Source: a virus. From it: DNA of 64,000 nt. This document shows, one piece after another, positions 28,866 through 44,181 of the stretch. Below the pieces are notes generated by a model. It saw nothing but the letters and a program-made list of their open reading frames with translations. It was not told the origin of the DNA and searched no databases. The DNA lies in IMG/VR virus record IMGVR_UViG_3300032087_006376, positions 1-64,000 of that record; one strand, 5' to 3'. The position numbers and the translations under genes are program-made. Within the stretch, counting starts at the first letter, position 1. Each line of letters starts with the position of its first letter.

Positions 28866-30383
28866 ATGATATACTCTTATGACCTCGAAACTCAACTTCT
28901 TGCAGGTCTAATAAAATACCCAGATAGGTATGCAGATATAGCTTCTCACATAACGGAGAAAGACTTTTGGTCGGAGTCTTCTAAAATAAATAGAACTATT
29001 TTTTCCGTACTCAAACAAGCTATTGAAAACGGAGATGAAATCGATGAAGTAGTTATAGCGCAAAGAGTTAAAGAATTTGGCATATCTTTTGACGATTCCT
29101 TAAATCCTTATGACCATATTGAATCTTTATCTTTAAGAAAAGTTTCAGCAGACTCAGTTGTAAGCATAGCTTCAGAGCTTAAAAAATATACCGTCCGAAG
29201 AGAAATAGCTCAATGCGGTGTTGATATAAGCAACAAAATGAGGGCGTTGCATAATGCCTCGTTTAATGAGATTATAGAAAAGTCTGATGAAATTTATAAC
29301 AATCAGATAAATTTATACGAGACAGGCACGGACCAACCTGAAAATATTTTCGATTCAATGGAAGAATTGATCGAAGAAAGAGGAGAAAATCCTATAGATG
29401 AGTTTGGATTTTCCGGTCCTCATCCAAAATTGCAAGATATGTACGGATCTCTCCTCAGGCCCGGTAACATCACTGTTATTGTTGCAAGGTCAGGTGTCGG
29501 TAAAACTCAGTTCTGCATAGATTTTGTAACAAAGACCTCCGAAAAATACCAAGTTCCGATTCTTCATTTTGATAATGGAGAAATGAGTAAGGAAGAACTG
29601 ATGTTTAGGCAGTGCGCATCAATGTCAGGAGTTCCTGTTTGGCTTCTTGAAAGCGGTAATTGGAGAAATAGCGGCAAAGAAATAGTCAGTAAAGTTAGAT
29701 CAGTTTGGAAAACTATAGCCAAAAAATATAAACATTTTTATTATTACAACATAGGAGGATTTAATGTGGATTCCCAAATAAGCATTTTAAAAAGATTTTA
29801 TTATGCTAAAGTCGGAAGAAACAATCCTTTAATATTTAGCTTTGATTATATAAAAACAACTAATGAAAATTCTTCCAACAAGAATGAATGGCAAGTAGTT
29901 GGAGAAATGGTTGATAAATATAAAAAATGTATTCAAAGAGATATTATGGGTGATTCAGGGCCTTGCGTATCTATGATCACTTCAGTTCAATCAAATAGAT
30001 CTGGAATCACCACAAACCGAAATGCAACAAATATTGTAGATGATGAGAGTATCGTTTCGCTTTCAGATAGAATTACTCAGTTTTCATCTCACATGTTTAT
30101 CTTGAGAAATAAAACAGCAGATGAGCTTCAATCTGAAAGAGGTTTTGGAACCCATAAACTAATAAACGTAAAAGCTAGACACCTAGGCAGAGATATAGCT
30201 GGAGCAGTAAACTTAGTTACAATGAATGATGGAACAGCTAGAAAAAATTTCGTTAATTTAGAGTGTAATAATTTCCATATAACTGAAAAGGGCGATTTAC
30301 GAGATATTGTCAATTCTCAAGATGCAAACTCAACAGTAGAAAATAGAAACAATGGAACCGAAGACATACCTGAATTGGACTGA
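28866..30383 (+). CDS. dnaB: Replicative DNA helicase, DnaB family
   Basis: 505 aa. N-terminal DnaB domain (QLLAGLIKYPDRYADI ... FWSESSKINRTIF) and RecA-like C-terminal domain: ITVIVARSGVGKTQF is Walker A, LIFSFDYIKTT Walker B, MITSVQSNRS the H3/H4 region, and GTHKLINVKARHLGRD the DNA-binding/Arg-finger region. Hexameric 5'-3' helicase by family. The 3' end overlaps primase by 32 bp, as expected for partners in one primosome. Confidence 0.9.
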   Translation: MIYSYDLETQLLAGLIKYPDRYADIASHITEKDFWSESSKINRTIFSVLKQAIENGDEIDEVVIAQRVKEFGISFDDSLNPYDHIESLSLRKVSADSVVSIASELKKYTVRREIAQCGVDISNKMRALHNASFNEIIEKSDEIYNNQINLYETGTDQPENIFDSMEELIEERGENPIDEFGFSGPHPKLQDMYGSLLRPGNITVIVARSGVGKTQFCIDFVTKTSEKYQVPILHFDNGEMSKEELMFRQCASMSGVPVWLLESGNWRNSGKEIVSKVRSVWKTIAKKYKHFYYYNIGGFNVDSQISILKRFYYAKVGRNNPLIFSFDYIKTTNENSSNKNEWQVVGEMVDKYKKCIQRDIMGDSGPCVSMITSVQSNRSGITTNRNATNIVDDESIVSLSDRITQFSSHMFILRNKTADELQSERGFGTHKLINVKARHLGRDIAGAVNLVTMNDGTARKNFVNLECNNFHITEKGDLRDIVNSQDANSTVENRNNGTEDIPELD

Positions 30384-31449
30384 AGATCAGTCTGACAAAA
30401 TAGAAGAAATACTTCTTGATTTAGGTTACGAACTTTCTGATAGAGGTAGGTATTGGCAAAGCACTGCAGCGTATAGAGATGGCGACAACAGAACAGCTTT
30501 ACAAATCTGGAAAAACACTGGTATTTGGAAAGATTTTGTCCAAGGAACTTCTTACATGCCCTTTAAAAAGCTACTAGAGCTTAGTTGTAAAGATGACAGT
30601 AAAGTAGAAAATATAATAACATCTTTAAAGTCGGATACTAATTCTTTCATACCTGTACACAAAGCGCCAAAAATGGAAACAGATCAGTTTTTTACTCACG
30701 ACGAAATAGGAGTGCTTTTGCCTCATTATGATTTTTACAATAAAAAATCCATAACAGACAAAACTCTTAAAATTTATCGTGCAGGATTTTCTATGTCCGG
30801 CAAAATGAATGGCAGGTTTGTTTTTCCCGTATATGACCCGAATGAAAAAGTCATAGGCTTAAGTGGTAGACATTTACTTTGGGACAAAAACTCTTCTATG
30901 CCTAAATGGAAACACTTAGGTCGCAAAACAAGATGGGTTTACCCATTTAATATTCCCGATTATAGCGATTTGTTTTATAAAAAAATTAATGAAACAAAAG
31001 AAGTCATACTTGTCGAAGGTATAGGTGACAGTTTAGCCCTTACAGAGCAAGGTTTTCATAATCATATGGTCATCTTTGGTTTAGACTTGAGCTCTAAACA
31101 GATATCACATCTTTTATCATTAGATTTAGAAAAAATCACTATCGCTACTAATAATGATTATGACAAAAGCAAAAACGCTGGCAGGGACGCAGCAATAAAA
31201 ATACTTGTTAAATTAATTAAGTATTTTGATCCGCAAAAAGTTCAAATAAAGTTGCCTTTGTTGAAGGATTTTGGAGAGATGCTTGAACAACAAGTTGAAA
31301 TACACAAGTGGGTTCAAAGGAAAATTAATCCACTCAAACAGGTATCTAAAATCTTAGAGAATAAAAGAAACATAAAAGATAAAAAATGTGTAAAAATATT
31401 AGAAGATTATTTAGAAAAGTTAAGTTTTGAATCAGACACTATCGGCTAG
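30352..31449 (+). CDS. TOPRIM DNA primase
   Basis: 365 aa. TOPRIM core: EVILVEGIGDSLAL (catalytic Glu) and ITIATNNDYDKSKNAGRDAA carrying the D-x-D-like acidic part. Upstream, YRAGFSMSGKMNGRFVFPVYD and VIGLSGRHLL are the DnaG-type RNA-polymerase-domain blocks. No CHC2 zinc finger Cys set is seen in the N-terminal ~130 residues. Works with the overlapping dnaB. Ends at 31449, overlapping the following nuclease gene by 23 bp. Confidence 0.85.
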   Translation: MEPKTYLNWTEDQSDKIEEILLDLGYELSDRGRYWQSTAAYRDGDNRTALQIWKNTGIWKDFVQGTSYMPFKKLLELSCKDDSKVENIITSLKSDTNSFIPVHKAPKMETDQFFTHDEIGVLLPHYDFYNKKSITDKTLKIYRAGFSMSGKMNGRFVFPVYDPNEKVIGLSGRHLLWDKNSSMPKWKHLGRKTRWVYPFNIPDYSDLFYKKINETKEVILVEGIGDSLALTEQGFHNHMVIFGLDLSSKQISHLLSLDLEKITIATNNDYDKSKNAGRDAAIKILVKLIKYFDPQKVQIKLPLLKDFGEMLEQQVEIHKWVQRKINPLKQVSKILENKRNIKDKKCVKILEDYLEKLSFESDTIG

Positions 31450-32539
31450 TAAAATCAAAACCATGACTTCCTGCTCTTGGTTGTACTGGTGTAAATATCA
31501 TCTCAAACTTCCAGATAAAACTAATGATGGAGCTTTAAAGGGCAGTATTGTGCATTTAGTTTTAGAATGCCTTGGTAAAGACAGGCATAAAAAACATTAT
31601 GATTTAATATTAAAAGAAGGAACTGTTTGTGGATCTAGTGCCGTAGAGAGGTTAATTTATAAACACGCCAAATCTTCTAATTTATTAGAAAATCCATCTA
31701 ATTTAGAAGACATATATGACATGGCTTTTAGAGGTGTAGTTTACGATTTTTTTGGCAAAAAGATAGGCAGACCCACCGAAACCATTTCAGAAAAAGAATT
31801 TGAACTAGAAATTGAAGAAGATGATGTGAGGTATAAAGTTAAAGGCTTTATTGACAGATTGTTCATGTACAAAAGCAAAGGTATAGCTTTAATTAGAGAT
31901 TTTAAAACTAATAAAAAAGTATATGAAGGAAAAGAAGTCACAGATAATTTGCAAGATTACATTTATACTCTAGCTGTAAAAAAACTTTACCCTAAATATA
32001 AAGATGTTAAAATGGAGTTCGTATTCCTTAAAGCAATGCAGAGCTCACAGTCTTCTTCAGGAAAGTGGCAGATAGTTGGTTCATCTGATTCTGTGTTAAC
32101 AATGAGATCGAAAACCGAAGATGAACTTAAAGGTTTTGAATATGAATTAACTGACTTTCAGTCTTATGCTGAAAATTTTACTCAGGAAACAGCCACCTCT
32201 AGTTTAGCTTCTGAACAAGGTATGCCAAAAGATGGAAGTTTTAGTGGTCGCCTTTTGTGCGGGTTTGCCAAAAAACCAAATGAACTTAAAAAAGATGGTT
32301 CACCAAAGTGGTATTGTTCTTATAAATTTCCATTTGATTATTACTCAGTTATTGACGAAAAAAATCAAACTAAAAGATCTTTCTTTACGGAAAAAGAAGC
32401 TATTGAATATAAACAAAAAAAAGACAAGATATTAAAACTTCAGTACACTGGATGCCCCTCATTTAACAAGCCAGCCACACCTCCTCCATTCGAATGGTCT
32501 TCCGAAATAGACGATGAATTTGACCTTGACAAATTTTGA
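31427..32539 (+). CDS. RecB/Cas4-type PD-(D/E)XK exonuclease
   Basis: 370 aa. LSASKIKTMTSCSWLYWCKY and KGSIVHLVLE (conserved His and Glu) at the N terminus; VKGFIDRLFMYKSKGIALIR then DFKTNKKVYEG give the D...E/D-x-K active site and L-Q-D-Y-I-Y the Q-x-x-x-Y motif. Extra Cys (C near 16, then LLCGF, WYCSYKF, YTGCPSF in the C-terminal third) could form an Fe-S cluster as in Cas4/AddB; this is not certain. Likely end processing for recombination. Confidence 0.8.
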   Translation: MNQTLSASKIKTMTSCSWLYWCKYHLKLPDKTNDGALKGSIVHLVLECLGKDRHKKHYDLILKEGTVCGSSAVERLIYKHAKSSNLLENPSNLEDIYDMAFRGVVYDFFGKKIGRPTETISEKEFELEIEEDDVRYKVKGFIDRLFMYKSKGIALIRDFKTNKKVYEGKEVTDNLQDYIYTLAVKKLYPKYKDVKMEFVFLKAMQSSQSSSGKWQIVGSSDSVLTMRSKTEDELKGFEYELTDFQSYAENFTQETATSSLASEQGMPKDGSFSGRLLCGFAKKPNELKKDGSPKWYCSYKFPFDYYSVIDEKNQTKRSFFTEKEAIEYKQKKDKILKLQYTGCPSFNKPATPPPFEWSSEIDDEFDLDKF

Positions 32540-32553
32540 TATTGATGTAATGT
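32526..32553 (+). promoter_or_regulatory. Weak sigma70-like promoter / GATGTAA motif before polymerase genes
   Basis: TTGACA (32526-32531), 16 bp, TAATGT (32548-32553). The -10 overlaps GATGTAATGTATTT, a relative of the late-type motif, 7 bp before the ATG at 32561. Either class is possible. Confidence 0.4.
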
Positions 32554-32560
32554 ATTTAAC

Positions 32561-33316
32561 ATGCTAGCTTTGTTTAAAAGCCATTACTCTATAGGAAAAT
32601 CAATTTTAACTCTTAATGATCCGTCTAAAGTAAAAGATGGCGGATCTGATAGTGTTTTTCAAATAGCTTTAGAAAATAATTTATCAGAGGTAATTTTGGT
32701 AGAAGATTCTTTGATAGGTTTTTCTGAAGCTTATAAAAGATGCATAGAACATAACATAAAATTAGTTTTCGGCCTTAGACTTTCTATGCGAAACTCTAAA
32801 GAAGAAGCTGATGCCGAAAGCGAACATAAAATAATCATTTTTTCAAAAAACAACCAAGGGTGCAAACTCTTAAATCTAATTTATTCTAAAGCTTTCACAG
32901 AATTTGACGGCTACTTAACTTATGAAACTCTTGAAAAGATTTGGGATGATGCTCACTTAAAATTAGCAGTTCCGTTTTACGATTCATTTTTGTACACTAA
33001 TTTGTTAAAGTATGGCACTAACTCAATACCTAACTTTAATAAAATAAAACCTACTTTTTTTATTGAGTCTAACGGTTTAGCTTTTGACTCATTACTTAAA
33101 GATGAAGTTGTAGAATACGCCACCAAAAATAATTATTCTACAGAAAAAGTAAAATCAATTTATTATAAAAATAAAAAAGACGCCGAAGCGCTAATGACTT
33201 ATAAAATAATATGCAACAGATCATTTGGTAAAGCTAGAAGCTTATCAAGACCAGAGCTTGCGCATTTTTGCAGCAATGAATTTAGCTTCGAATCATGGAA
33301 AGAACAAAATGCTTAA
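32561..33316 (+). CDS. DNA polymerase III alpha, detached PHP domain
   Basis: 251 aa. FKSHYSIGKSILTLNDP followed by VFQIALENNLSEVILVEDSL and KLVFGLRLSM copies the order of the DnaE N-terminal PHP domain (V/F-H-x-H-x-x-S, A-x-x-x-g-x-x-a-l-T-D, G-x-E/R). Several PHP metal His are replaced (SHYSIG; GLRL for GxEh), so phosphatase/exonuclease activity is doubtful. The polymerase module is a separate gene at 33938. Ends overlapping the exonuclease gene by 8 bp. Confidence 0.75.
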   Translation: MLALFKSHYSIGKSILTLNDPSKVKDGGSDSVFQIALENNLSEVILVEDSLIGFSEAYKRCIEHNIKLVFGLRLSMRNSKEEADAESEHKIIIFSKNNQGCKLLNLIYSKAFTEFDGYLTYETLEKIWDDAHLKLAVPFYDSFLYTNLLKYGTNSIPNFNKIKPTFFIESNGLAFDSLLKDEVVEYATKNNYSTEKVKSIYYKNKKDAEALMTYKIICNRSFGKARSLSRPELAHFCSNEFSFESWKEQNA

Positions 33317-33941
33317 AGACGATAAAAAACAGAAATATATATGTTTCGATTTTGAAACTTGTAATTTAAACTTGCTTAGCCCAGACAATAAACCTTGGCA
33401 ATTAAGCTATATAATCGCACAAGGGTACAAGATCGTAAAAGAAAAAGATTGCTATATAAAATGGCCTGACTTAAAACTTTCAGAAGAAGCTAGAAAAATT
33501 ACTAGATTTGATGATAAAAAATACAATAGACTAGCTCAAGACCCTAAGAAAGTTTTAGAAGAATTTGAATCTTATTTATACGACAAAGATTACATTATAG
33601 TCGGCCAAAACCTTTTAGGTTTTGATGTTTACATCCACAACATATATAGAAAACTGTTAGGATTAGATTCAGATTTTTCTTATATAAATAGAATTTACGA
33701 TACTAACTGTGTAGCTAAAGCTATTAAAAAAGGAATGAAAACTCCCAGCAGTTTAGATAAGTTTATTCAATGGCAGTATAGGCTCAACGATTTCAGAGAA
33801 AGAAACTTAAGAACCAGCATAAAAGCTCAACTTAAGCAGTATAAAATAGATTTCGATGAAAACAAATTGCATGACTCCTTGTATGATGTTCAAATGAATT
33901 TGAAAATATTTCGCAAACAATTAATACAGATAGATTTATGA
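33309..33941 (+). CDS. DnaQ-like 3'-5' proofreading exonuclease
   Basis: 210 aa from ATG 33309. DEDD fold: YICFDFETCNLNLL is Exo I (Asp-x-Glu), IIVGQNLLGFDVYIHNIY is Exo II (N-x-x-x-F-D), and LHDSLYDVQMNLKIF is Exo III (H-D...Y-D, DEDDh/y). Lies exactly between the PHP and polymerase parts of DnaE and overlaps both. Expected to proofread for the polymerase encoded next. Confidence 0.85.
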   Translation: MLKDDKKQKYICFDFETCNLNLLSPDNKPWQLSYIIAQGYKIVKEKDCYIKWPDLKLSEEARKITRFDDKKYNRLAQDPKKVLEEFESYLYDKDYIIVGQNLLGFDVYIHNIYRKLLGLDSDFSYINRIYDTNCVAKAIKKGMKTPSSLDKFIQWQYRLNDFRERNLRTSIKAQLKQYKIDFDENKLHDSLYDVQMNLKIFRKQLIQIDL

Positions 33942-36502
33942 GTTTTTTAGATGATATAAAGCAATACGATAACGCAATGATGCCCGGAGTAAGATTGCCG
34001 AGCATCAAAATAGAAAACAAGTATTACAAAAAGCTCAATCTCGATAGTAATGTCGATAATTTTAATTTTTTAAAAGCTTTATGTTATTCTAAAATCACAA
34101 CTGCACAGTTTCAATCTGAAGAATATCAAAGCCGCCTCTCAATGGAGCTTGATATTTTTAAAGAGCTTGAGTTTGTTGATTATGTTTTACTTAATTGGGA
34201 CATTCTTAATTTTTGTCACGAAAATAAAATTCCAACTGGTCCGGGTAGAGGGAGTGCCGCAGGATCATTGGTTTTATTTCTAATTGGAGTCACTAAGGTT
34301 GACCCCATTAAGTACGGATTATTTTTCGAAAGATTTGTTTCTAGATCTAGAGCTAAAAAAATCATAAAAGATGGCATTACCTATCTAGAAGGATCCCTTC
34401 TCCCTGACGTTGACAATGATATTAGTTACGACAGAAGATCTGAGGTCATCGAGTATATCGAAAAAAAGCATTACGGAAAAACCGCTAAAATTTTAACGCT
34501 TAATACTCTTTCTAGTAAATTATGCATAAAAGAATGTGGAAAAATAGTAGGCGAATATTCTGAGTCTGAAGTTAATGAAGTAAGTGACTGTATTCCGAAA
34601 ATCTTTGGAAAAGTTATGCCTCTGGTTGACTCGTACAAAGAAAATGAAAAATTTAAAGAGTGGGTTGATTTAAATAAGAAAACTTTTGCTATAGCCAGAA
34701 AAATAGAAAGCTTAAACAAAAATACTGGAGTTCATCCGTCAGGTATTGCAATTTCATATTATGACATTCAAGAAATTTGTCCTTTACAAAAAACTAGTGA
34801 GGGAGATTTTGTCACTGGATATGATATGAATTACGTATCTGAGTTGATGGTTAAATTTGATGTTTTAGGCTTAAGAACTTTAACTGTAGTAGATAGAGTC
34901 TGTAAATCTCTAGGCATTGAGATGACCTCTATTGATGTGTCTGATAAAAATATTTACAAAAACTTCAAAGACCTAAAAACTCCTCAAGGTTTGTTTCAAA
35001 TTGAAGCTGACACTAATTACAGAGTTTGCAAAAAAGTAAGACCAAGAAATCTTGAAGAACTCAGTGCCGTAGTAGCTTTAGCTAGACCCGGAGCTTTAGA
35101 TTTTACAGATGAATATGCTTTATACACAAGCAGCGGTCAATTTGGGCTAGTTCATGATTTTTTTGAAGAGGAACTTTCTTACACTGCTGGAATTCCGCTA
35201 TATCAAGAGCAATTGATGAAGATGGCTGTAAAAATTGGATTTACTTTAGATGAAGCCGAGCAGCTTAGAAGAATAGTGGGTAAGAAAAAAGTTGATCAAA
35301 TGCCAGCTTGGAAGGAGAAAATTTCTAAAAAAATCTCAGAAAATAATTTGGATCCTAAAATAGGTGAAGTTTTATGGAAAGTTGCAGAAGATTCAGCTAA
35401 TTACAGCTTTAATAAATCTCATAGTATATCTTATGCCACACTTTCTGCTTGGACGGCGTATTTAAAGTTTAATTACCCTCAAGATTTTTATTTAGCATTA
35501 TTAGAATTATCAAAATACGAACCAGATTCTCATGCCGAAATAAGCAAGATATCTCAAGAGTTAGTTCATTTTGACATGCAATTGCTTTCTCCAGATTTGT
35601 CCAAATCATCTTTAGACTTTTCAAAAGAAGGAAACAACATAAGATTCGGTTTAAACGCCATTAAAGGCGTCTCAGAGAAAAGCTTACAGGCTTTAGAGAG
35701 CTTCAGAGGCTCCAACAAAGCTAATAAGTTTGAAACGTTTCTAGCAGCAAAAGAGGCTAAAATCAATATCGGGCTTTTATCTGCTTTAATTCAAGCTGGA
35801 ACTTTAGAATCTCCCGAAAATCGTTCTAGATCTGGACTGGTTATGGAAGCGCAAGTTTTCAATATATTAACAGATAAAGAAAAAGCTTACGCTTTGAGTG
35901 TTGCGGAAAAATATAACTTTGATATTTTACAAATCGTTTTTCAAGCGGCGTTCGACCCAGATAAACCTGACGCTAAAAGAAGTGACGGTAAACCGTTCAT
36001 GACTGAAAAAAGAAAAACCACTTTCAAGAAAAAATACAATGAGTATAAAAAAATCTATTCCCAAAATAAAGGTAATGAAGATTTTGCTAATTGGTATTTT
36101 GAAAATAAACTACTTGGCTACAACCCCTCAGTTAAATTAAAATCAGTATTTAAAGAAAGCCAGAGTAACTTTACAGATTGCTTACAATTAGACTCAGTAT
36201 TTAACGGAGACTCTGTTAAAATAGTAGCCATAGTAGAAGATGTTTATAAAAGTAAATCAAGAAAATCTAATTCTACTTTTTATAAATTCCAAGTTAGCGA
36301 TGAATCAGGGCGCACGAACGCTTTGTTCATGGATAGCCCTAAAGTTAAGAGGTTAACTAACTACATAGAAAAAGGTAATAAGATTCCAGAAAAAGAAGAC
36401 ATTATAGTCTTTACAGGCAAAAAAGGAGATGATATAGTTTGGGTAGATAACATAAATATTTTAGAAAATAAAATATACATGAAGTTATCAGATGTGGAAT
36501 GA
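33938..36502 (+). CDS. dnaE: DNA polymerase III alpha, catalytic part (family C, no PHP)
   Basis: 854 aa. PTGPGRGSAAGSLV (~99-112) is the family C nucleotide motif; PDVDNDIS gives catalytic D157 and D159, and VKFDVLGLRTLT supplies D308, matching E. coli D401/D403/D555. GVHPSGIAIS, ALARPGAL, YQEQLM and SFNKSHSISYATLSAW are further blocks. The C-terminal ~170-residue region carries an OB-fold stretch (VKIVAIVEDVYKS). The N-terminal PHP is absent and encoded two genes upstream. Phage replicase. Confidence 0.92.
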   Translation: MSFLDDIKQYDNAMMPGVRLPSIKIENKYYKKLNLDSNVDNFNFLKALCYSKITTAQFQSEEYQSRLSMELDIFKELEFVDYVLLNWDILNFCHENKIPTGPGRGSAAGSLVLFLIGVTKVDPIKYGLFFERFVSRSRAKKIIKDGITYLEGSLLPDVDNDISYDRRSEVIEYIEKKHYGKTAKILTLNTLSSKLCIKECGKIVGEYSESEVNEVSDCIPKIFGKVMPLVDSYKENEKFKEWVDLNKKTFAIARKIESLNKNTGVHPSGIAISYYDIQEICPLQKTSEGDFVTGYDMNYVSELMVKFDVLGLRTLTVVDRVCKSLGIEMTSIDVSDKNIYKNFKDLKTPQGLFQIEADTNYRVCKKVRPRNLEELSAVVALARPGALDFTDEYALYTSSGQFGLVHDFFEEELSYTAGIPLYQEQLMKMAVKIGFTLDEAEQLRRIVGKKKVDQMPAWKEKISKKISENNLDPKIGEVLWKVAEDSANYSFNKSHSISYATLSAWTAYLKFNYPQDFYLALLELSKYEPDSHAEISKISQELVHFDMQLLSPDLSKSSLDFSKEGNNIRFGLNAIKGVSEKSLQALESFRGSNKANKFETFLAAKEAKINIGLLSALIQAGTLESPENRSRSGLVMEAQVFNILTDKEKAYALSVAEKYNFDILQIVFQAAFDPDKPDAKRSDGKPFMTEKRKTTFKKKYNEYKKIYSQNKGNEDFANWYFENKLLGYNPSVKLKSVFKESQSNFTDCLQLDSVFNGDSVKIVAIVEDVYKSKSRKSNSTFYKFQVSDESGRTNALFMDSPKVKRLTNYIEKGNKIPEKEDIIVFTGKKGDDIVWVDNINILENKIYMKLSDVE

Positions 36503-38916
36503 AAAATTATAATTTAACTCCTAGAGCTCAAAAATTAATTAAAGAAGCTCATAAAATAGCTACAGATCTTGAGTATTATCAATTAAATAATGTTCACTTG
36601 CTGTTAGCTTTTTTAAAAATTCCAAACAATCAAATTTTAGACGCTTTTGACCAATTCGAAGTGAGCTATGATCTCGTTGAGAAGGCTTGTCTTTTTACTT
36701 TAAATAAACCCAAGCTTAGAAATAGCCAATCAGCTTCTAGATCCAAGCTGTCTTCCATCACTAGAAAAGTTTTTTCTTCTGCTAAACAATTATCAAACAA
36801 GTATGATCATAAATATATAGGATTAGAGCATATATTTTTGTCGCTGTTTGGTGAAACAGACATCTTTTTAAGAGATGTAATAGCTAACTTGCAAATTAAT
36901 TACGACGCTATATTTGATTATGTCGAAAGAAAGCTAGAAGAAAGTGATTTATTGCCTTCTTCAATTTACGAAGAAGAAGCTGATGAAGAGCAGGATCAAA
37001 AAAAATCTCAATTTAATCCCAAGAATTATAAGTTTTTAAATGAATATGCTACTAATTTAAATTCTCAAGTCATACAAGGAAAAATAACCTCTCTCCATAT
37101 TAACAAAAGTCTAATAAAAAAGATTTCTGAAGTTCTTTGTAGAAAAAATAAAAATAACCCATTAGTTGTTGGAGAAGCTGGCGTAGGAAAAACTGCATTA
37201 GTAGAATCTTTAGCGCAAGCAATTGTAGATGGAGAATGTTCTGATTTCTTAGTAATGAAACATATTTACAATTTAGACGTTCCGATGATTATCGCCGGTT
37301 GTAAATATAGAGGAGAGTTTGAAGAAAAGATTAAAAATATTTTAAAAGAAATTGTAAACGATCCATTCATCGTGTTGTTTATTGATGAAATTCATACGAT
37401 AATCGGAGCAGGTAACCCGGAAAACGGCATGGATGTCGCAAACATTCTTAAACCTTATTTAGCTAGAGGCGAAATTAGCTGCATAGGGGCGACAACTTTC
37501 GACGAATATAAACGCACTATTGAGGGAGACCCAGCTTTATCTAGAAGGTTTCAAATGATAAAGATGGAAGAACCTACGAAAAAAGAAGTTTTTCAGTTAA
37601 TTAAAAATATTAAAAATTCTTATGAAGATTTTCATTTAATGAATTTCTCAGATGAAACAATAAAATTCACAATCGACGTAGCTGATAAATATCTAGAAGG
37701 CAGATTCCCAGATAAAGCCTTAGATATCATAGATCAAGTTGGAGCTAAAACAAAACTTAAAAATTTTACAAAAACTCCAGAAATGATTTCTATTGAAGAA
37801 AAAATAAAAGATCTTTCATCAAAGCAAGATAAGCTAGCTAAAAACACATTCCTTAAAAGAATGAATTCTTTGATAAAAAAATATCAAACTATAACTGAAA
37901 AACTTTTTAACAAATGGAAAGATTCTAGATACAGAATTAAACAGGCAGATATCTTAGAAGTTGTATCAGATAAAACTAACATTCCAATTTCAGACTTAAA
38001 AAAACAAGACTCTAAAAAAATAAAAGACCTTAGAGATTCATTGAAGACTGAAGTTTTAGGTCAAACAGATCAAATAGATCAAATATACAAATGTTTACTA
38101 AGGGCAAAAGCTGGCTTTAGGAACGATAAAAAACCAGTATCATCATTACTTTTAGCTGGTCCGACAGGTGTCGGCAAAACCATGACTGCAAAAATTATTG
38201 CCAACAGCTTATTCCCGAATAAAAACAACTTTATATTTTTAGATTTAACAGAATACACAGACCAAACAGCCGTCAATAAATTAATTGGATCTAGCCCGGG
38301 TTATATCGGCTACGGCAAAGGAGGCATACTAACTGAAAAAGTTTCTAGAAACCCATACTCTTTAATTCTTTTCGACGAAATCCAAAAAGCTCACAAAGAT
38401 GTATTATATTTACTGCTTCAAATACTTGAAGAGGGAAAGATATCAGATTCTTTAGGTAAAGAAGTTGATTTTTCCAATTCCATAGTAGTGATGACAACAA
38501 ACATAGGATCAGATATAGCTAATTCCTCTGTTATTGGTTTCAACAAAGAAAACTCTAATATATCTAACGATATCGTAAACTCTGTCAAAAAACATTTTCC
38601 AGCAGATCTATTAAACAGAATAGACGAAGTAATACCCTTTAGCCCCCTAAAAGAAGATCATATTAAGAGTATTATAATCAAGAACTTAGATAAATTTAAA
38701 ACTGAAATGAAAAACAAAAATCTTTCTTTAAATTACTCTAGTAAAATTCTTGATTATGTTTATAAAAAAATACAATTCAATAATTTTGGAGCTAGGCAAG
38801 TTTTAAAAACAGTGCAGAGAGAAATTCAAACTTTAGTTGCTGAAAAAATACTAGATAATCCAAAAACTTCTGAATTAAAAATGTGTGTCAAAAACAATAA
38901 AATATGTGTAATATAA
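36499..38916 (+). CDS. ClpA/ClpC-like AAA+ unfoldase
   Basis: 805 aa. Clp N-domain repeat region (1-145), D1 with Walker A GEAGVGKT (225-232) and Walker B FIDE (D296/E297), a short middle helical segment (~430-480), D2 with GPTGVGKT (554-561) and LFDE (D626/E627). In D2, SSVIGFNKEN places I679-G680-F681 at the position of the ClpP-docking IGL/VGF loop of ClpA/ClpC. ClpB disaggregases lack that loop, so this looks like a ClpP partner using host ClpP. No clpP gene is in the window. Confidence 0.88.
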   Translation: MKNYNLTPRAQKLIKEAHKIATDLEYYQLNNVHLLLAFLKIPNNQILDAFDQFEVSYDLVEKACLFTLNKPKLRNSQSASRSKLSSITRKVFSSAKQLSNKYDHKYIGLEHIFLSLFGETDIFLRDVIANLQINYDAIFDYVERKLEESDLLPSSIYEEEADEEQDQKKSQFNPKNYKFLNEYATNLNSQVIQGKITSLHINKSLIKKISEVLCRKNKNNPLVVGEAGVGKTALVESLAQAIVDGECSDFLVMKHIYNLDVPMIIAGCKYRGEFEEKIKNILKEIVNDPFIVLFIDEIHTIIGAGNPENGMDVANILKPYLARGEISCIGATTFDEYKRTIEGDPALSRRFQMIKMEEPTKKEVFQLIKNIKNSYEDFHLMNFSDETIKFTIDVADKYLEGRFPDKALDIIDQVGAKTKLKNFTKTPEMISIEEKIKDLSSKQDKLAKNTFLKRMNSLIKKYQTITEKLFNKWKDSRYRIKQADILEVVSDKTNIPISDLKKQDSKKIKDLRDSLKTEVLGQTDQIDQIYKCLLRAKAGFRNDKKPVSSLLLAGPTGVGKTMTAKIIANSLFPNKNNFIFLDLTEYTDQTAVNKLIGSSPGYIGYGKGGILTEKVSRNPYSLILFDEIQKAHKDVLYLLLQILEEGKISDSLGKEVDFSNSIVVMTTNIGSDIANSSVIGFNKENSNISNDIVNSVKKHFPADLLNRIDEVIPFSPLKEDHIKSIIIKNLDKFKTEMKNKNLSLNYSSKILDYVYKKIQFNNFGARQVLKTVQREIQTLVAEKILDNPKTSELKMCVKNNKICVI

Positions 38917-38917
38917 G
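38904..38917 (+). promoter_or_regulatory. Late-type promoter motif ATGTGTAATATAAG
   Basis: Overlaps the end of the unfoldase gene and ends 3 bp before the ATG at 38921, ahead of virion-type genes. Confidence 0.5.
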
Positions 38918-38920
38918 TAT

Positions 38921-39124
38921 ATGCCTTTACCTAAACCAAGGAAAAGAGAATCTCGACAAGAATTCGTCAGCAGATGTATGAGTGACGATATGATGACTAG
39001 TGAGTACAAAGAGCAAAAACAGCGTGTTGCAGTTTGTTTAACTCAGTTTCAAAATATTCAAAAATCCAAAGGTGAAGCTAGCTGGGATGATGTCCGTAAA
39101 GGAAATATATTAGGATTATTATAA
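38921..39124 (+). CDS. Small conserved phage protein, head-associated type
   Basis: 67 aa. PKPRKRESRQEFVSRCM followed by EQKQRVAVCLTQF is a recognisable block (basic Pro-rich lead, F-x-S/x-R-C-M, Q-R-x-A-V-C) found as a stand-alone protein or fused to prohead proteases and head proteins in many phages. Function unknown. Precedes a virion protein by 1 bp. Confidence 0.65.
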   Translation: MPLPKPRKRESRQEFVSRCMSDDMMTSEYKEQKQRVAVCLTQFQNIQKSKGEASWDDVRKGNILGLL

Positions 39125-39125
39125 T

Positions 39126-39965
39126 ATGCAAACCCCACCTAACATTCACGATGCATTCGCAATTTCCCCCAGTAGAACTCATACAGTTAATTTTAATTAC
39201 GTATGGGATGAAGTTAATGATTATTGGACCCCTGAAAGAACCAGCGCTATTTCAAGAGACGCAATTTTAGGAAAAGCTGACGATTTTATTCACAAATTTG
39301 GAAGTAATCCTAACGTTTCCAACTCTATCAGTAAGATTGCTCCAGAAACTGTTTGGGACGGTTCTACAGAGTATGTTTTTCCTCCTGATTCAGGAACAGG
39401 TATACAAATTAAATCTTCACAAACAAATGATAATCAAGAATTTGTTGTTCAAGGACTTGATGAAAATTTTCTAGAACAAAATTGGACAGGTAATTTAAAT
39501 GGTCAAACAGAAGTTAATATAGGTGGAACTTGGTCAAGGGTTTTTAGAGCATTTAATAACGATACTACATATATATCTGGCGATATAAATATTCATGCTA
39601 GCGGAGATGATTCAACAAGCTACGCTCAAGTTTTAGCAGGTAATGAACAAACAATGATGGCAATTTATACAGTTCCTGCTAATTTTACTGGATATTTGAC
39701 CGAATACCACATGAGCGCCAGCAACCCCGGAAGTTCTGCCTCGATAGATTATACAGTTCAAATCAAAACAAGAGAATACGGAAAAGTCTTTCGTGTCCAA
39801 GAGGTTACTTCCGTAGGCACTACTCATAATGTTAGCCAAATACTTCCTTTTCCTAACTTTTTAAGCCCTAAAACTGATATTATCATATGCGCAGTTGATT
39901 CAAACGGAGGAGGAGGCACACTTAACGCTGACTTTGATATAGCATTGGTTTCAAACGAAAACTAA
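39126..39965 (+). CDS. Putative virion structural protein
   Basis: 279 aa, beta-rich, no signal peptide. QEFVVQGLDENFLEQNWTG, TWSRVFRAFNNDTTYISGD and MAIYTVPANFTGYL form a pattern common to structural proteins of marine phages (possible decoration or tail protein). C-terminal ADFDIALVSNEN. It carries a late-type motif upstream with its small partner. Specific location in the particle unknown. Confidence 0.6.
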   Translation: MQTPPNIHDAFAISPSRTHTVNFNYVWDEVNDYWTPERTSAISRDAILGKADDFIHKFGSNPNVSNSISKIAPETVWDGSTEYVFPPDSGTGIQIKSSQTNDNQEFVVQGLDENFLEQNWTGNLNGQTEVNIGGTWSRVFRAFNNDTTYISGDINIHASGDDSTSYAQVLAGNEQTMMAIYTVPANFTGYLTEYHMSASNPGSSASIDYTVQIKTREYGKVFRVQEVTSVGTTHNVSQILPFPNFLSPKTDIIICAVDSNGGGGTLNADFDIALVSNEN

Positions 39966-39988
39966 CCGTAATCTTTAGAAAAAAATAC

Positions 39989-40016
39989 TTGAAATTTTAT
40001 TTTATTGATTCATAAT
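39989..40016 (+). promoter_or_regulatory. Sigma70-like promoter of the tubulin operon
   Basis: TTGAAA (39989-39994), 16-bp spacer, CATAAT (40011-40016, 5/6). The start site would fall at about 40023, inside the hairpin that follows. Confidence 0.6.
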
Positions 40017-40017
40017 A

Positions 40018-40041
40018 GTTATATTACTTAATTAATATAAC
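40018..40041 (+). promoter_or_regulatory. 9-bp palindromic hairpin ahead of the tubulin operon
   Basis: GTTATATTA / TAATATAAC, perfect 9-bp stem, 6-nt loop CTTAAT. Ends 3 bp before the ATG of the 34-aa ORF and overlaps the expected transcription start. It could be an operator for a dimeric repressor or an RNA hairpin controlling translation. Confidence 0.6.
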
Positions 40042-40044
40042 GAC

Positions 40045-40149
40045 ATGTCACAAGAAGAAAATACAGATACAGTGGGATCTCTCAAGATTCGTGTTGCAAA
40101 TATGCTCCTTAATACCGTTGCTCTCAGCGAGAGTTTAAATTTAATATAA
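40045..40149 (+). CDS. 34-aa peptide upstream of phage tubulin
   Basis: MSQEENTDTVGSLKIRVANM then LLNTVALSESLNLI: an acidic N-terminus and an amphipathic/hydrophobic helix. Ends 3 bp before the tubulin start, so the two are very likely co-translated. By analogy with small regulators next to other phage and plasmid tubulins it could bind the tubulin, but it also could be a leader peptide. No family recognised. Confidence 0.6.
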   Translation: MSQEENTDTVGSLKIRVANMLLNTVALSESLNLI

Positions 40150-40152
40150 ATT

Positions 40153-41310
40153 ATGAGTGATTTTAATCCAATCTATGATGTCGGTGCAGATAATGAGCCT
40201 GATGCAGGTAACAATGACACTTTTGACTTTGCAATGCCTGACATTCCAGAGCCAACTCAAGAAGAAAAAGTCGAACTAAAAGATAAAGATGCAGTAGGTT
40301 TTAAGTTTGGCTTTATTGGCGCTGGCCAAGGCGGGGGTAAATTAGCCGAAACTTTTTCTAAAATAGGCTACGCAAGAGTTGGAGTAATTAACACAGCTGA
40401 CCAAGATCTGGCCACGTTGAATGTTAAAAACAAATTAAAATTTGGAGAACAACAAGGAGCTGGCAAAAATAGAGGTATTGCCAAGCAAGCTTTTGCTGAA
40501 AATAAAGAAGATGTTGTTGACTTCATTAAAGATTCTATCGGTACAGATATTGATAGAATTTTTGTAACAATTGGAGCTGGAGGTGGTACTGGTGCTGGCG
40601 TTTCCTCTGAGTTAGTTAAAACTGTTCATGAATATCAACAAACAGTAAAAGCTTCATCTCCATATGTAGGTTTAATTTTAGCTTTACCCAAACTATCTGA
40701 GGGCAAAAAAGTTAGCTTAAATGCTTATGAAACTTTAAAAGAAGCGTGTGACTTGGTAGATAAAAAAATAGTTTCACCTTTAATTATTTTAGACAACGAA
40801 AAAATTAATACTCTTTACCCTAAATTATCGATAAATAAGTTCTGGCAAGTAGCAAATGCCAACATTTGTTCGCTGTTTCATTTATTCAATAATATTATTA
40901 CAAAAAATAGTCAGTATAGCACTTTTGACACTAATGATTTCAGAACCGTTTTAGATTCTGGCATTATGGTTTTTGGAGCGACAAATATTAACGACACAGG
41001 TAGTGAATCCGCAATTTCTAAAGCTGTTAGAGATAACCTTAAAAGAAACGTTTTATGCGGAGAATTAGACCTATCTACAGGCGTTGTAGCGGCATCTGTT
41101 GCTATAGGTGACGAAGAAACTCTTGATAACATTCCACAGGAATATATAGATGGAGCTTTTAATCAACTAAATAGAACTTTAAAAACGAATAGCACAGTAC
41201 ATCAAGGTATTTATAAAGGAGCTAAAAAAGGCTTGTCTTTATTTACGGCAATTGGAGGCATATCTACTCCAGAAGATAAGCTGGAATCACTTCTTAAATC
41301 GTCTCAATAA
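40153..41310 (+). CDS. Phage tubulin/FtsZ-family GTPase
   Basis: 385 aa. An acidic, disordered-looking N-terminal extension (1-47) precedes the GTPase domain: FIGAGQGGGKLAE (54-66), GVINTADQDL, and the tubulin signature GAGGGTGAG (141-149). In the C-terminal activation domain FDTNDFRTVL puts D259 and D262 on the T7-loop aspartates (FtsZ NxDFAD), so a GTP-hydrolysing polymer is predicted. Phage tubulins (e.g. PhuZ) centre or move phage DNA; this one looks closer to FtsZ in its T7 loop. Actual role unknown. Confidence 0.88.
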   Translation: MSDFNPIYDVGADNEPDAGNNDTFDFAMPDIPEPTQEEKVELKDKDAVGFKFGFIGAGQGGGKLAETFSKIGYARVGVINTADQDLATLNVKNKLKFGEQQGAGKNRGIAKQAFAENKEDVVDFIKDSIGTDIDRIFVTIGAGGGTGAGVSSELVKTVHEYQQTVKASSPYVGLILALPKLSEGKKVSLNAYETLKEACDLVDKKIVSPLIILDNEKINTLYPKLSINKFWQVANANICSLFHLFNNIITKNSQYSTFDTNDFRTVLDSGIMVFGATNINDTGSESAISKAVRDNLKRNVLCGELDLSTGVVAASVAIGDEETLDNIPQEYIDGAFNQLNRTLKTNSTVHQGIYKGAKKGLSLFTAIGGISTPEDKLESLLKSSQ

Positions 41311-41325
41311 GTGTAAAACATAAAA
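41309..41325 (+). promoter_or_regulatory. Late-type promoter motif AAGTGTAAAACATAAAA
   Basis: Begins at the tubulin stop codon and abuts the ATG at 41326. Confidence 0.5.
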
Positions 41326-41547
41326 ATGAAAGATTTAATATTACCATTTTGTACTTTTAACACAGGAACGACCATTAGTTGTCCATCTAATAAAAATATT
41401 TACGTTATTGCTGCTAACGCTGGATTTACAGCTGAAAGTGAATCGTTAACGATTTCCGCTCCCATTAGTTTTTCAGTGCCTTTAAAAATAAGCACTGACA
41501 TAACAGGGGCTACAGAAAAAACGATATTTTATTACATAGCAGATTAA
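41326..41547 (+). CDS. Unknown small beta-rich protein, 73 aa
   Basis: MKDLILPFCTFNTGTTISCP... with alternating hydrophobic strands and ending FYYIAD. Possible small virion or decoration protein, judged only from composition and the late-type motif at its start. Followed by a strong terminator. Confidence 0.55.
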   Translation: MKDLILPFCTFNTGTTISCPSNKNIYVIAANAGFTAESESLTISAPISFSVPLKISTDITGATEKTIFYYIAD

Positions 41548-41551
41548 CTCA

Positions 41552-41579
41552 AAGAGCCTCAAAAGAGGCTCTTTTTTTT
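41552..41579 (+). terminator. Intrinsic terminator
   Basis: AGAGCCTC-AAAA-GAGGCTCT, 8-bp stem, followed by a run of T. Ends the tubulin unit. Confidence 0.93.
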
Positions 41580-41587
41580 GTGGAAAT

Positions 41588-41616
41588 ATTGCATTTTATT
41601 TTTATAATCATGCAAT
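41588..41616 (+). promoter_or_regulatory. TATAAT flanked by inverted repeat, operator/promoter of ssb-like gene
   Basis: ATTGCAT (41588-41594) and ATGCAAT (41610-41616) form a 7-bp inverted repeat with 15 bp between; the perfect -10 TATAAT (41603-41608) lies inside. The second arm abuts the ATG at 41617. No good -35 is visible. The layout suggests a repressor site over the promoter. Confidence 0.55.
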
Positions 41617-42198
41617 ATGAGTTTACAATTATACAAGCCAAACCCTAAAAATACTGGCTGCGCCATGAGTTTCCAAATCTCTCAAAAGCCAGATCAAGAG
41701 CCACAGTTTTTTGCTAATTGCATTTTACAACATTCGTGGAATAACCAAAACAAAACGGGATCTTTTTCCGAAAGTAGAAACGACCCCTCCAAGACTATCG
41801 CTTTAAAATTTAATGAATTTGAGTTGGGCGAAATTATTAGCAGCTTTAATAATAAAACCGCTTATTCAACCTTTCATAGCAATGAGTCTACCAAGACTCA
41901 AATCAGGCTAACTCCTTACGAAAAAACTAGAGGAAGCGGAGATTTCGCAGTTCAAGTCACAGCTTTTGGGTTCACTATCGTCAGAAATGGTTCTGATACT
42001 TTTAAAGTCCCAGTAGATCCGGGCGAAGGAGTTAGATTAGTTTCTTTTATTAATCATTATTTTAATGTTTTAGACACCTTTAGAGACCAAAAAGCTAAAG
42101 AGAATCAAAAACAATATCAATCTAATAAGCAAAAATTCACTCCTAAGAAAAAAGAAGCGCCGAAACAACCTATCGCCGCCGAAGAAGATGAATTTTAA
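41617..42198 (+). CDS. Putative single-stranded DNA-binding protein
   Basis: 193 aa. N-terminal YKPNPKNTGCAMSFQISQK, then KTIALKFNEFELGEIISSFN and RLTPYEKTRGSGDFAVQVTA resemble the small beta-sheet ssDNA-binding proteins with a PC4/Whirly-like layout found in some phages. The C-terminus is a flexible Lys/Gln-rich linker ending in EEDEF, the acidic tail typical of SSBs that recruit partner proteins. Placement by tubulin and near replication genes fits. Fold assignment needs structure comparison. Confidence 0.65.
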   Translation: MSLQLYKPNPKNTGCAMSFQISQKPDQEPQFFANCILQHSWNNQNKTGSFSESRNDPSKTIALKFNEFELGEIISSFNNKTAYSTFHSNESTKTQIRLTPYEKTRGSGDFAVQVTAFGFTIVRNGSDTFKVPVDPGEGVRLVSFINHYFNVLDTFRDQKAKENQKQYQSNKQKFTPKKKEAPKQPIAAEEDEF

Positions 42199-42285
42199 TT
42201 AATTTTGTTCTGCAAGAATATTTCAAAGGATCAATACGCTAGACGTATTTCACTCTCTCAATATTAAGCAGCGCAATTATTTTTC
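42199..42285 (+). promoter_or_regulatory. Structured RNA leader, copy A (CUAGA-loop element)
   Basis: 87 bp gap upstream of a glycosyltransferase. A long imperfect closing stem (CTGC 42210-42213 with GCAG 42268-42271; AATATT 42217-42222 with AATATT 42260-42265) encloses a 6-bp hairpin AATACG-CTAGA-CGTATT (42233-42249). The closing stem is followed by ATTATTTTTC and then ATG; there is no Shine-Dalgarno. Copy B at 59841-59945 keeps loop, tail and position and shows a compensatory G-C to A-T pair in the hairpin. Could be a riboswitch-like attenuator or a small RNA ending just before the gene. Confidence 0.65.
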
Positions 42286-44181
42286 ATGAGAAAGAAAAAA
42301 ATATTAATCCATAGTAATTTTTGCAAAATGTTTACTGGTTTTGGTAAACACAAAAAAAACCTATTAAAGTATTTATATAAAACAGGTAAATATGAGTTAA
42401 TTGAACTTAGCAACGGATCTCCTTGGAGTTCCCCTAAAGTTAAATCTACACCATGGGAATCTTATGGCTCTTTGCCAGATGATCTAGAAACTCAAAAAGA
42501 AATTGCTTCTGATGAATCAAGAAAACATGGTGCTTCTTATGGTTCAGAAATGATTGATAAAGCTATATATGAACTCAAACCTGACGTGTATTTAGGGATA
42601 GAAGATATCTGGGCTTTTAGAGGTTTTTTCGATAAGCCATGGTGGAACAAAGTTCACTGCATTATTCACACCACATTAGACAGTTTGCCAATTTTACCAG
42701 ACGCCGTAGAAGCTGCAGACAAAATCAAAAATTATTACGTTTGGGCTTCTTTTGCTGAAAAAGCTTTAAATAAGATCGGACACAACCATGTAAAAACTAT
42801 AAGAGGTAGCATTGAAACTCAAAATTTCTTTAGATTCGACAATCAAGATAGAAACAAGTTGAGAAATTTTTTCGGTACCCAAGACAATTTCATCATAGGG
42901 TTTGTGTTTAGAAATCAATTGAGAAAATCTGTTCCAAATCTTTTAGATGGATTTAAAATCTTCACACAAAATAACCCGGACGCTAAAGCCAAACTTCTAC
43001 TCCACACTCATTGGTCTGAGGGGTGGGATATTTTAAAACTTTTAAAAGAAAAGAATATAGAAAGAACTGACATTTTAACAACATATTTTTGCTCCAGCTG
43101 CAATAGGTATGATATTAAATCATTTGAAGGCCAAAAAATTAAATGTAAATTTTGCCATCAAAATAATTCAAGCGAAACAACTAATGTGAAAAACGGAGTA
43201 GATGAAAGACAGTTGAATGAAATTTATAATTTGATGGATGTTTATTGCCATCCCTTTACTTCCGGTGGTCAAGAACTACCGATTCAAGAAGCTAAATTAA
43301 CAGAACTAGTAACTTTAGTAACTAATTATAGCTGCGGAGAAGATTGTTGTACAGATGAAAGCGGAGGCTTACCTTTGGACTGGACTGAATACAGAGAGCC
43401 CGGAACTCAATTTATAAAAGCTACCACATCCCCTATAAGTATTAGCAGCCAAATTGAAAAAGTCTACAAAATGCCCGAAGAAGAAAAACGTAGCAAAGAA
43501 AAAAAATCCAGACAATTTGTTTTAGAAAATTACAGCATAGAAAAAATAGGTAAACAATTTGAAGATTTAATAGACTCGTTTTCAGATGTAGAGTTTGATT
43601 ACAAAAAAGAACAAGAAATAAGAAATATCCATTTTGAACCAGACAATTCACTTCCAGATAAAGAATGGGTTGAGTCTTTATATGAAAATATATTAGGTAA
43701 AAGCGATCCACAAGGAACTAAACACTGGATCCACAGGTTAAAAACTGATTTATCAAGATCTAAAGTTATTGATTATTTTACTAAGGTGGCGCTAAAAGAA
43801 AAATACTTAAATGATTTTGAAGAATTTTTACAAGAAATGGAGAATACTCCAGAAGAAAAAAGAATAGCTTACATAGAACCATTAGGAAGCGAAGAAGTTA
43901 TCATAGCAACTTCAGTGATTTCTTCAATAAAAAAACTTTACCCTGAACATTCTATTTATTTTTTCACCAAAACAGAAAACATGGGGCTGGTTGACGCTCA
44001 TCCAGACATTAAAAGAACTTTAAATTACATACCCAAAATAAACGACCCGTTATTCTTGGAGGGTAAAGGCGACAAAAAAGGGTGTTTCGATGTAGTGTAT
44101 GCTCCTCATTTGTCAATTAAAAATAATTATACCAGAAATAACAAAGATAAACTAGATTATACAACTTATGAATCTGAGTGA
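42286..44181 (+). CDS. Multidomain glycosyltransferase: GT4-like + DUF4214 + GT9-like start
   Basis: 631 aa. Residues ~1-430: GT-B enzyme (FCKMFTGFGKHKKNLLKYL, FVFRNQLRKSVPNLLDGF, PFTSGGQELPIQEAKLTELV) with an inserted Cys4 zinc ribbon CSSC...CKFC (~265-290). Residues ~460-515: DUF4214 (WVESLYENILGKSDPQGTKH). Residues ~525-631: the start of a GT9-like Rossmann fold (EEVIIATSVISSIKKLYPEH). The GT9-like part seems to continue in the next gene (14-bp overlap), so the two may be a split or fused heptosyltransferase-type enzyme. Preceded by RNA element A. Confidence 0.75.
   Translation: MRKKKILIHSNFCKMFTGFGKHKKNLLKYLYKTGKYELIELSNGSPWSSPKVKSTPWESYGSLPDDLETQKEIASDESRKHGASYGSEMIDKAIYELKPDVYLGIEDIWAFRGFFDKPWWNKVHCIIHTTLDSLPILPDAVEAADKIKNYYVWASFAEKALNKIGHNHVKTIRGSIETQNFFRFDNQDRNKLRNFFGTQDNFIIGFVFRNQLRKSVPNLLDGFKIFTQNNPDAKAKLLLHTHWSEGWDILKLLKEKNIERTDILTTYFCSSCNRYDIKSFEGQKIKCKFCHQNNSSETTNVKNGVDERQLNEIYNLMDVYCHPFTSGGQELPIQEAKLTELVTLVTNYSCGEDCCTDESGGLPLDWTEYREPGTQFIKATTSPISISSQIEKVYKMPEEEKRSKEKKSRQFVLENYSIEKIGKQFEDLIDSFSDVEFDYKKEQEIRNIHFEPDNSLPDKEWVESLYENILGKSDPQGTKHWIHRLKTDLSRSKVIDYFTKVALKEKYLNDFEEFLQEMENTPEEKRIAYIEPLGSEEVIIATSVISSIKKLYPEHSIYFFTKTENMGLVDAHPDIKRTLNYIPKINDPLFLEGKGDKKGCFDVVYAPHLSIKNNYTRNNKDKLDYTTYESE

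What the first reader, a model, noticed from the sequence alone, without database searches (positions are those of the whole stretch)
40018..41310. Phage tubulin/FtsZ GTPase with a co-translated 34-aa ORF and palindromic leader
The 385-aa GTPase keeps the tubulin signature GAGGGTGAG and both T7-loop aspartates (D259, D262), so polymerisation with GTP turnover is expected. It has an acidic 47-residue N-terminal extension. A 34-aa ORF ends 3 bp before it, and a perfect 9-bp palindrome overlaps the predicted start site of a sigma70-like promoter. Phage tubulins are known in jumbo phages (PhuZ) but not usually with this FtsZ-like T7 loop or in a genome with this replication set. It could position phage DNA, or poison host division.
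Basis: partly seen in the sequence, partly recalled or inferred. Interest (0 to 1): 0.85.

Follow-up and report, generated by a model that had tools for sequence, protein, structure and literature searches.

The report
TubZ-like phage tubulin with planctomycete cousins
A marine phage carries an intact filament-forming tubulin gene belonging to an apparently undescribed family shared by at least dozens of uncultured viruses and, surprisingly, by some chromosomes of planctomycete bacteria that lack the usual division tubulin FtsZ; the short ORF and palindrome beside it are local and unrelated to its function.

Summary
The 385-aa ORF at 40153-41310 is a real tubulin/FtsZ-superfamily GTPase. The GTP-binding signature and both T7-loop aspartates (D259, D262) are kept in 40/40 dereplicated viral relatives, so selection for GTP hydrolysis is strong. 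It is neither FtsZ (NCBIfam 73 bits against a cut-off of 295) nor PhuZ (remote in the tree, TM 0.52-0.57). It is TubZ-like: the AlphaFold2 model matches TubZ-Bt best (TM 0.77). It belongs to a distinct clade found in at least dozens of uncultured viruses. In 18 of 39 viral loci the gene directly follows the portal-like gene; in the window lineage it lies in the replication operon and is the most conserved of 16 shared genes. All viral members have an acidic N-terminal extension, nearly all with a PDI-like motif. No TubR or iteron centromere was found. The closest cellular relatives are chromosomal tubulins of Phycisphaerae (patchy, mostly Lys-tailed), one clade placed, marginally, inside the viral diversity. 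The 34-aa ORF is a truncated copy of a 113-aa gene from an inserted module, and the inverted repeat is unconserved; neither is a partner. Best reading: a cytomotive TubZ-type filament that positions phage genomes or capsids through an N-terminal adaptor motif (inferred). New variant of a known kind.

The parts
40153..41310 (+). TubZ-like tubulin GTPase, 385 aa
   Evidence: Pfam PF00091 7.6e-11, Tubulin_2 1.7e-9, TubZ-like_C 3.7e-4 (below cut-off); PDB RepX/TubZ 5e-17; AlphaFold2 pLDDT 85.4, pTM 0.83; TubZ-Bt TM 0.77
40153..40290 (+). acidic disordered N-terminal extension (residues 1-46)
   Evidence: net charge -10 over residues 1-56; negative in all 25 viral members tested, L043 being cut at the contig end; pLDDT below 50 over residues 1-25
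40216..40254 (+). conserved linear motif DTFDFAMPDIPEP (residues 22-34), candidate adaptor-binding peptide
   Evidence: PDI-like motif in nearly all viral members; PTLDLEQYE at the same place in Phycisphaerae members. Function inferred
40573..40599 (+). T4 GTP-binding signature GAGGGTGAG (residues 141-149)
40918..40953 (+). T7 loop STFDTNDFRTVL with catalytic-type D259 and D262
   Evidence: D259 and D262 invariant in 40/40 viral and 34/34 Phycisphaerae sequences
38921..39124 (+). 67-aa ORF; directly upstream of the tubulin in most close relatives, displaced here by an insertion
   Evidence: absent next to the tubulin in L006, L022 and L123
39126..39965 (+). 279-aa ORF (phrog_8198), inserted between the 67-aa ORF and the tubulin
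   Evidence: same module in L123
40045..40149 (+). 34-aa ORF: truncated copy of a 113-aa phage protein, part of the inserted module; not a conserved tubulin partner
   Evidence: 65% identity to L123:6876-7214; its 3' end resembles the end of the 67-aa gene of L009
40018..40041 (.). 9+9 bp inverted repeat GTTATATTA-CTTAAT-TAATATAAC
   Evidence: not conserved; 18 similar repeats in the window
28866..38916 (+). replication operon upstream: DnaB-like helicase, primase, exonuclease-like gene, PHP-like, exonuclease, DNA polymerase III alpha, ClpA-like ATPase
   Evidence: PHROGs and Pfam; the PHP-like gene named by eye
41326..41547 (+). 73-aa ORF downstream, poorly conserved (49%)
   Evidence: followed by a terminator-like hairpin at 41551-41574
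41617..42198 (+). 193-aa acidic-tailed protein, possibly an SSB (inferred by eye; no family hit)

Best explanation
The gene encodes a TubZ-type cytomotive tubulin of a large marine tailed phage. Monomers bind GTP and polymerise head to tail; the T7 loop of one subunit completes the GTPase site of the next, so filaments turn over. The disordered acidic N-terminus, with its conserved PDI-like motif, links the filament to a phage cargo, most likely the replicating genome or the portal/procapsid, and filament dynamics move or centre that cargo late in infection. Shown computationally: superfamily, TubZ-like fold, invariant GTPase residues, conserved N-terminal motif, conserved genomic association with packaging (in relatives) or replication (in this lineage). 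Inferred: polymerisation, the cargo, the adaptor role of the N-terminus, and positioning.
For: TubZ is the best fold match (TM 0.77) and best PDB sequence match. D259, D262 and most GTP-binding residues are invariant across 40 dereplicated viral proteins. The tubulin is the most conserved of 16 shared genes in the region (83.0% against 73.6% for DnaB and 70.9% for DNA polymerase III alpha), as expected for a polymer with many contacts. The portal-like gene directly precedes it, with gaps of 5 bp or less, in 18 of 39 viral loci, and that gene's model matches phage portals. All viral N-termini are acidic, nearly all with the motif. Precedent: PhuZ positions phage DNA and needs GTP hydrolysis (PMC4244570), and it centres and rotates the phage nucleus (PMC10299810).
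Against: No biochemistry or imaging exists. No TubR-like adaptor (best E 0.048) and no iterons were found near the gene. Gene placement varies between lineages, so the cargo cannot be read from synteny alone. The portal-like gene was recognised only from a low-confidence model (pLDDT 55). PhuZ itself is dispensable for phiKZ (PMC10299810), so any role may be modest.
Confidence: 0.62

Rival explanations
1. Type III partition (TubZRC-like): the filament segregates an extrachromosomal, plasmid-like phage genome during pseudolysogeny, as TubZ does for plasmids and for a clostridial prophage.
For: The nearest known proteins are plasmid TubZ/RepX; TubZ partition in a phage is known (Oliva 2012, cited in PMC7824862).
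Against: No TubR homologue in the 127.7-kb contig and no iteron array near the gene, whereas all eight plasmid TubZ loci read have a small gene directly upstream, and so does phage G. The C-terminus is short, without an evident TubZ-type tail.
Confidence: 0.18
2. Host-division interference: the protein co-assembles with or poisons host FtsZ.
For: A superfamily member expressed in a cell with FtsZ could in principle disturb it; one possible host bin encodes FtsZ.
Against: It scores 73 bits on the FtsZ model (cut-off 295), the fold is nearer TubZ than FtsZ, the catalytic site is strictly kept, and relatives occur in lineages where no FtsZ was found.
Confidence: 0.06
3. PhuZ-like spindle serving a protein-shelled phage nucleus.
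For: Tubulin plus large phage; PhuZ is the best-known phage case (PMC10299810).
Against: PhuZ is remote in the tree (stem length 5.9) and in fold (TM 0.52-0.57). No chimallin or phiKZ RNA polymerase beta match by phmmer in the 127.7-kb contig and no RNA_pol_Rpb1 domain in four contigs. The contigs may be incomplete and chimallin is hard to detect.
Confidence: 0.08

Closest known systems
TubZ / RepX (type III plasmid partition tubulin, Bacillales plasmids; also Bacillus phage G gp138)
   Same: Best fold and sequence match; GTPase core; sub-cut-off hit to the TubZ-like C-terminal domain.
   Different: Separate clade; T7 loop D-x-x-D instead of D-x-x-E; long acidic N-terminal extension and short C-terminus; no TubR gene or iteron centromere found.
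PhuZ (Chimalliviridae tubulin)
   Same: Phage-encoded tubulin with D-x-x-D T7 loop.
   Different: Very remote sequence and fold; PhuZ core motifs differ (phiKZ GGASG in place of GGGTG); no chimallin or multisubunit RNA polymerase found here.
FtsZ
   Same: Superfamily GTPase core and T7 loop.
   Different: 73.5 bits against the FtsZ cut-off of 295.2; outside the FtsZ group.
CetZ (archaeal)
   Same: CetZ2 is the next best fold after TubZ (TM 0.71).
   Different: Lower TM than TubZ; no CetZ was put in the tree.
Chromosomal tubulins of Phycisphaerae (no name found)
   Same: About 30-35% identity; shared signatures such as PLII-DN-KI, FD--D and H[RQ]GIY; next to part of the viral family in the tree.
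   Different: Eight of the eleven N-termini compared are lysine-rich (net +9 to +86) instead of acidic; often tandem copies, some with a degenerate GTP-binding motif.

Membership tests
Tubulin/FtsZ superfamily | PF00091 GTPase domain above gathering cut-off with GGGTG[ST]G-type signature | tested here: met
   43.1 bits against 33; GAGGGTGAG
Tubulin/FtsZ superfamily | Two-domain tubulin fold | tested here: met
   AlphaFold2 pLDDT 85.4; Foldseek TubZ E 3e-24
Tubulin/FtsZ superfamily | GTP-dependent polymerisation | not testable with these tools
   needs purified protein
TubZ type III partition system | Adjacent TubR DNA-binding adaptor | tested here: not met
   no TubR homologue; best E 0.048 at a distant gene
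TubZ type III partition system | Centromere iterons (tubC) near the operon | tested here: not met
   only chance-like two-copy repeats in 38900-42300
TubZ type III partition system | Falls inside the TubZ sequence clade | tested here: inconclusive
   outside the plasmid TubZ plus phage G group (91/84); viral plus Phycisphaerae grouping 83/96; long branches
PhuZ | Falls in the PhuZ clade | tested here: not met
   PhuZ group 100/100 excludes it
PhuZ | Phage-nucleus gene set (chimallin, multisubunit RNA polymerase) | tested here: inconclusive
   none found, contigs may be incomplete
FtsZ | TIGR00065 equivalog cut-off | tested here: not met
   73.5 of 295.2 bits

The most novel reading that the evidence does not exclude
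FtsZ-less Phycisphaerae took up a tubulin from this phage family and put it to cellular use: an H1-like, DNA-binding tail was added and the gene settled among housekeeping genes, giving a chromosome-segregation or division filament in planctomycetes, whose division protein is unknown. The phage members would keep the ancestral cargo-moving role, through an acidic adaptor peptide, in packaging or replication.
Probability: 0.22. Interest if true: 0.85.

Novelty: new variant of a known kind. Interest (0 to 1): 0.6.

Why it matters
Described phage tubulins are few: PhuZ of nucleus-forming phages and TubZ of partition-type phages. Here is a third group: TubZ-folded, without a partition partner detected, present in at least dozens of uncultured viruses, and often placed directly after the portal-like gene, which would make tubulin-driven cargo movement a broader phage strategy, not confined to nucleus-forming phages. 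Its chromosomal relatives lie in a planctomycete class said to divide in a fission-like manner without FtsZ (PMC6952346), so the family offers concrete candidate genes for a question those authors leave open, although the genes are patchy there.

Tried and rejected
1) 34-aa ORF as co-translated partner: rejected, a truncated 113-aa gene inside an inserted module. 2) Palindromic leader/promoter: rejected, unconserved and not special. 3) The 67-aa upstream protein as conserved partner: adjacent in most close relatives, even where other synteny is lost (L009), but absent next to the tubulin in L006, L022 and L123, with no convincing family hit. 4) TubR and centromere search: nothing. 5) 'The missing division tubulin of all Phycisphaerae': rejected as a general claim, 20/397 genomes in the class, 25/148 in the order, 15/39 in one family. 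6) First motif scan of viral contigs used the wrong gap length and found nothing; corrected. 7) Viral monophyly: only marginally rejected (AU p 0.043), so virus-to-bacterium transfer is suggested, not shown. 8) Literature (openly licensed PMC papers only): no paper describing this family was found; a BFVD entry from an uncultured phage, named FtsZ, looks like a member or near relative (27% identity).

Full report
OBSERVATION. The ORF at 40153-41310 (+, 385 aa) is real and intact. It hits Pfam Tubulin (7.6e-11, above cut-off), Tubulin_2 (1.7e-9, above cut-off) and TubZ-like_C (3.7e-4, below cut-off). The best PDB sequences are RepX/TubZ (5e-17) and archaeal and Aquifex FtsZ (8e-14). PHROGs has no convincing family (E 0.0024, unknown function). 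The signature GAGGGTGAG and the T7 loop STFDTNDFRT with D259 and D262 are as reported. The record is a 127,708-bp linear virus contig.

RELATIVES. One close contig (L002) has an identical protein; ten other close contigs carry orthologues of 74-84% identity, and L022 has 85%. A corrected motif scan found three more distant viruses, L042, L043 and L050 (35-49%). An alignment search then found 189 viral matches, of which the best 80 were kept. In cultured phages only Bacillus phage G gp138 is detectable (27% over half the length); in plasmids, TubZ proteins of Bacillales.

WHAT IT IS. A maximum-likelihood tree of 65 proteins puts the window in a viral clade of 24 (98/95). All 22 Phycisphaerae-type tubulins form one clade (99/98), with two viral proteins (L043, L050) next to it (85/97). 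Plasmid TubZ plus phage G are separate (91/84), PhuZ is very remote, FtsZ is the outgroup. Forcing all viral sequences together is marginally rejected (AU p 0.043). Long branches make the deep order unsure. The AlphaFold2 model (36-sequence alignment, pLDDT 85.4, pTM 0.83) matches TubZ-Bt best (TM 0.77), then CetZ2 and TubZ/RepX; FtsZ gives about 0.61-0.66 and viral PhuZ-type proteins 0.52-0.57. It scores 73.5 bits on the FtsZ equivalog model, whose cut-off is 295.2. So it works like TubZ, but it is not shown to be part of a TubZRC partition system: no TubR homologue and no iterons were found.

CATALYTIC SITE. In 40 dereplicated viral sequences G56, G58, Q59, G61, N80, G102, G104, K105, G144, G145, G147, E183, N215, D259 and D262 are invariant, and D259 and D262 are also invariant in 34 Phycisphaerae-type sequences.

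N-TERMINUS. Every viral member tested has an acidic extension (net -5 to -19, apart from L043, cut at the contig end), and nearly all carry a PDI-like motif just before the core. Phycisphaerae members have PTLDLEQYE-like residues at the same place, and in 8 of 11 a lysine-rich tail precedes it (net +9 to +86). The variable tail is therefore N-terminal, unlike the C-terminal tails known for TubZ and FtsZ (own knowledge for the latter).

GENOMIC SETTING. In the window the gene follows a replication operon: DnaB-like helicase, primase, exonuclease-like gene, exonuclease, DNA polymerase III alpha, ClpA-like ATPase. Across six relatives it is the most conserved of 16 shared genes (83.0%; next DnaB 73.6%, DNA polymerase III alpha 70.9%). 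In 18 of 39 dereplicated viral loci it lies 5 bp or less after (once overlapping) a gene homologous to g174 of this contig, with the large terminase just upstream where covered, and with protease-like and capsid-like genes following where covered. g174 has no sequence hit, but its low-confidence model (pLDDT 55) matches phage portals almost exclusively. The protease and major-capsid names of g175 and g177 rest on position and are inferred.

34-AA ORF AND PALINDROME. Most close relatives have a 67-aa ORF directly before the tubulin. In the window that ORF is at 38921-39124, followed by an inserted 279-aa gene. In L123 the homologous 275-aa gene is followed by a 113-aa gene whose first 34 residues align with the 34-aa ORF (65% over the tblastn segment; score 130 against at most 45 for 2000 shuffles). 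The 3' end of the 34-aa ORF resembles the 3' end of the 67-aa gene of L009, which suggests that an insertion near the end of the 67-aa gene made a short chimeric ORF. The inverted repeat lies in this inserted stretch. The window has 18 comparable repeats, more than the 0-11 in first-order Markov simulations, so inverted repeats are enriched in general (terminators would contribute) and this one is not special.

CELLULAR RELATIVES. 33 loci in bacterial genomes were found: L123 is phage-like, L149 is labelled Omnitrophota, and the rest are Planctomycetota, mostly Phycisphaerae. One lies on a single 2.96-Mb chromosome record. In a group of six loci the gene sits near GAPDH, PGK, ribulose-phosphate epimerase and accD, which argues against prophage or contamination there. 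In eight planctomycete genomes tested with PF00091 these were the only tubulin-superfamily hits; the FtsZ-strength hits were in the Omnitrophota bin and the bin holding L123. Prevalence is patchy: 20/397 in the class, 25/148 in the order, 15/39 in one family. Several genomes carry tandem copies, some with a degenerate GTP-binding motif. The literature says planctomycetes lack FtsZ and that Phycisphaerae divide in a fission-like manner by an unknown protein (PMC6952346, PMC5147048, PMC12283558). The patchiness makes a general division role unlikely; segregation or another lineage-specific role is possible.

HOST. Unknown. L123 was binned with a low-GC genome (contig GC 0.32; L123 0.34; window 0.33) that encodes FtsZ, and a secreted-type protein of the window phage (g98) has 37-42% identical relatives in genomes related to that bin. 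A C-terminal motif in one of them reminds me of Marinimicrobia-type secreted proteins; this is a lead from memory, not a test.

MECHANISM. The most likely mechanism is a GTP-driven TubZ-type filament that positions phage genomes or procapsids, with the N-terminal motif as the adaptor-binding site. Fold, catalytic conservation and synteny are shown; polymerisation, cargo and adaptor are inferred.

Noticed in passing
L124-L155 (except L149), Planctomycetota, mostly Phycisphaerae: Chromosomal TubZ-like tubulins in planctomycetes in which no FtsZ was found, many with long lysine-rich H1-like N-terminal tails (up to net +86).
   Followed up: partly
L128, L129, L145, L147, L150, L151, L153: Tandem tubulin pairs in Phycisphaerae; second copies in L129 and L145 have a degraded GTP-binding signature (GGGTG lost or GGGAG) but keep the T7 aspartates, suggesting a pseudo-GTPase partner.
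   Followed up: partly
18 viral loci such as L087, L104, L118, L120: The tubulin gene lies directly after the portal-like gene in the head/packaging cassette.
   Followed up: yes
L003 3490-7386: The DNA polymerase III alpha gene is split in two around a 315-aa ORF, possibly a homing endonuclease or intein-type insertion.
   Followed up: no
whole contig 71940-73487 (L013 7940-9487, g98): Phage-encoded secreted-type protein, 37-42% identical to proteins in genomes related to the bin that holds L123; possible host hint.
   Followed up: partly
window 51159-52760 (g61) and 48902-50086 (g58): Judged by eye: an ankyrin-repeat protein with a nucleotide-cyclase-like C-terminus, and a PAS-type sensor histidine kinase-like protein, both unusual for a phage.
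   Followed up: no
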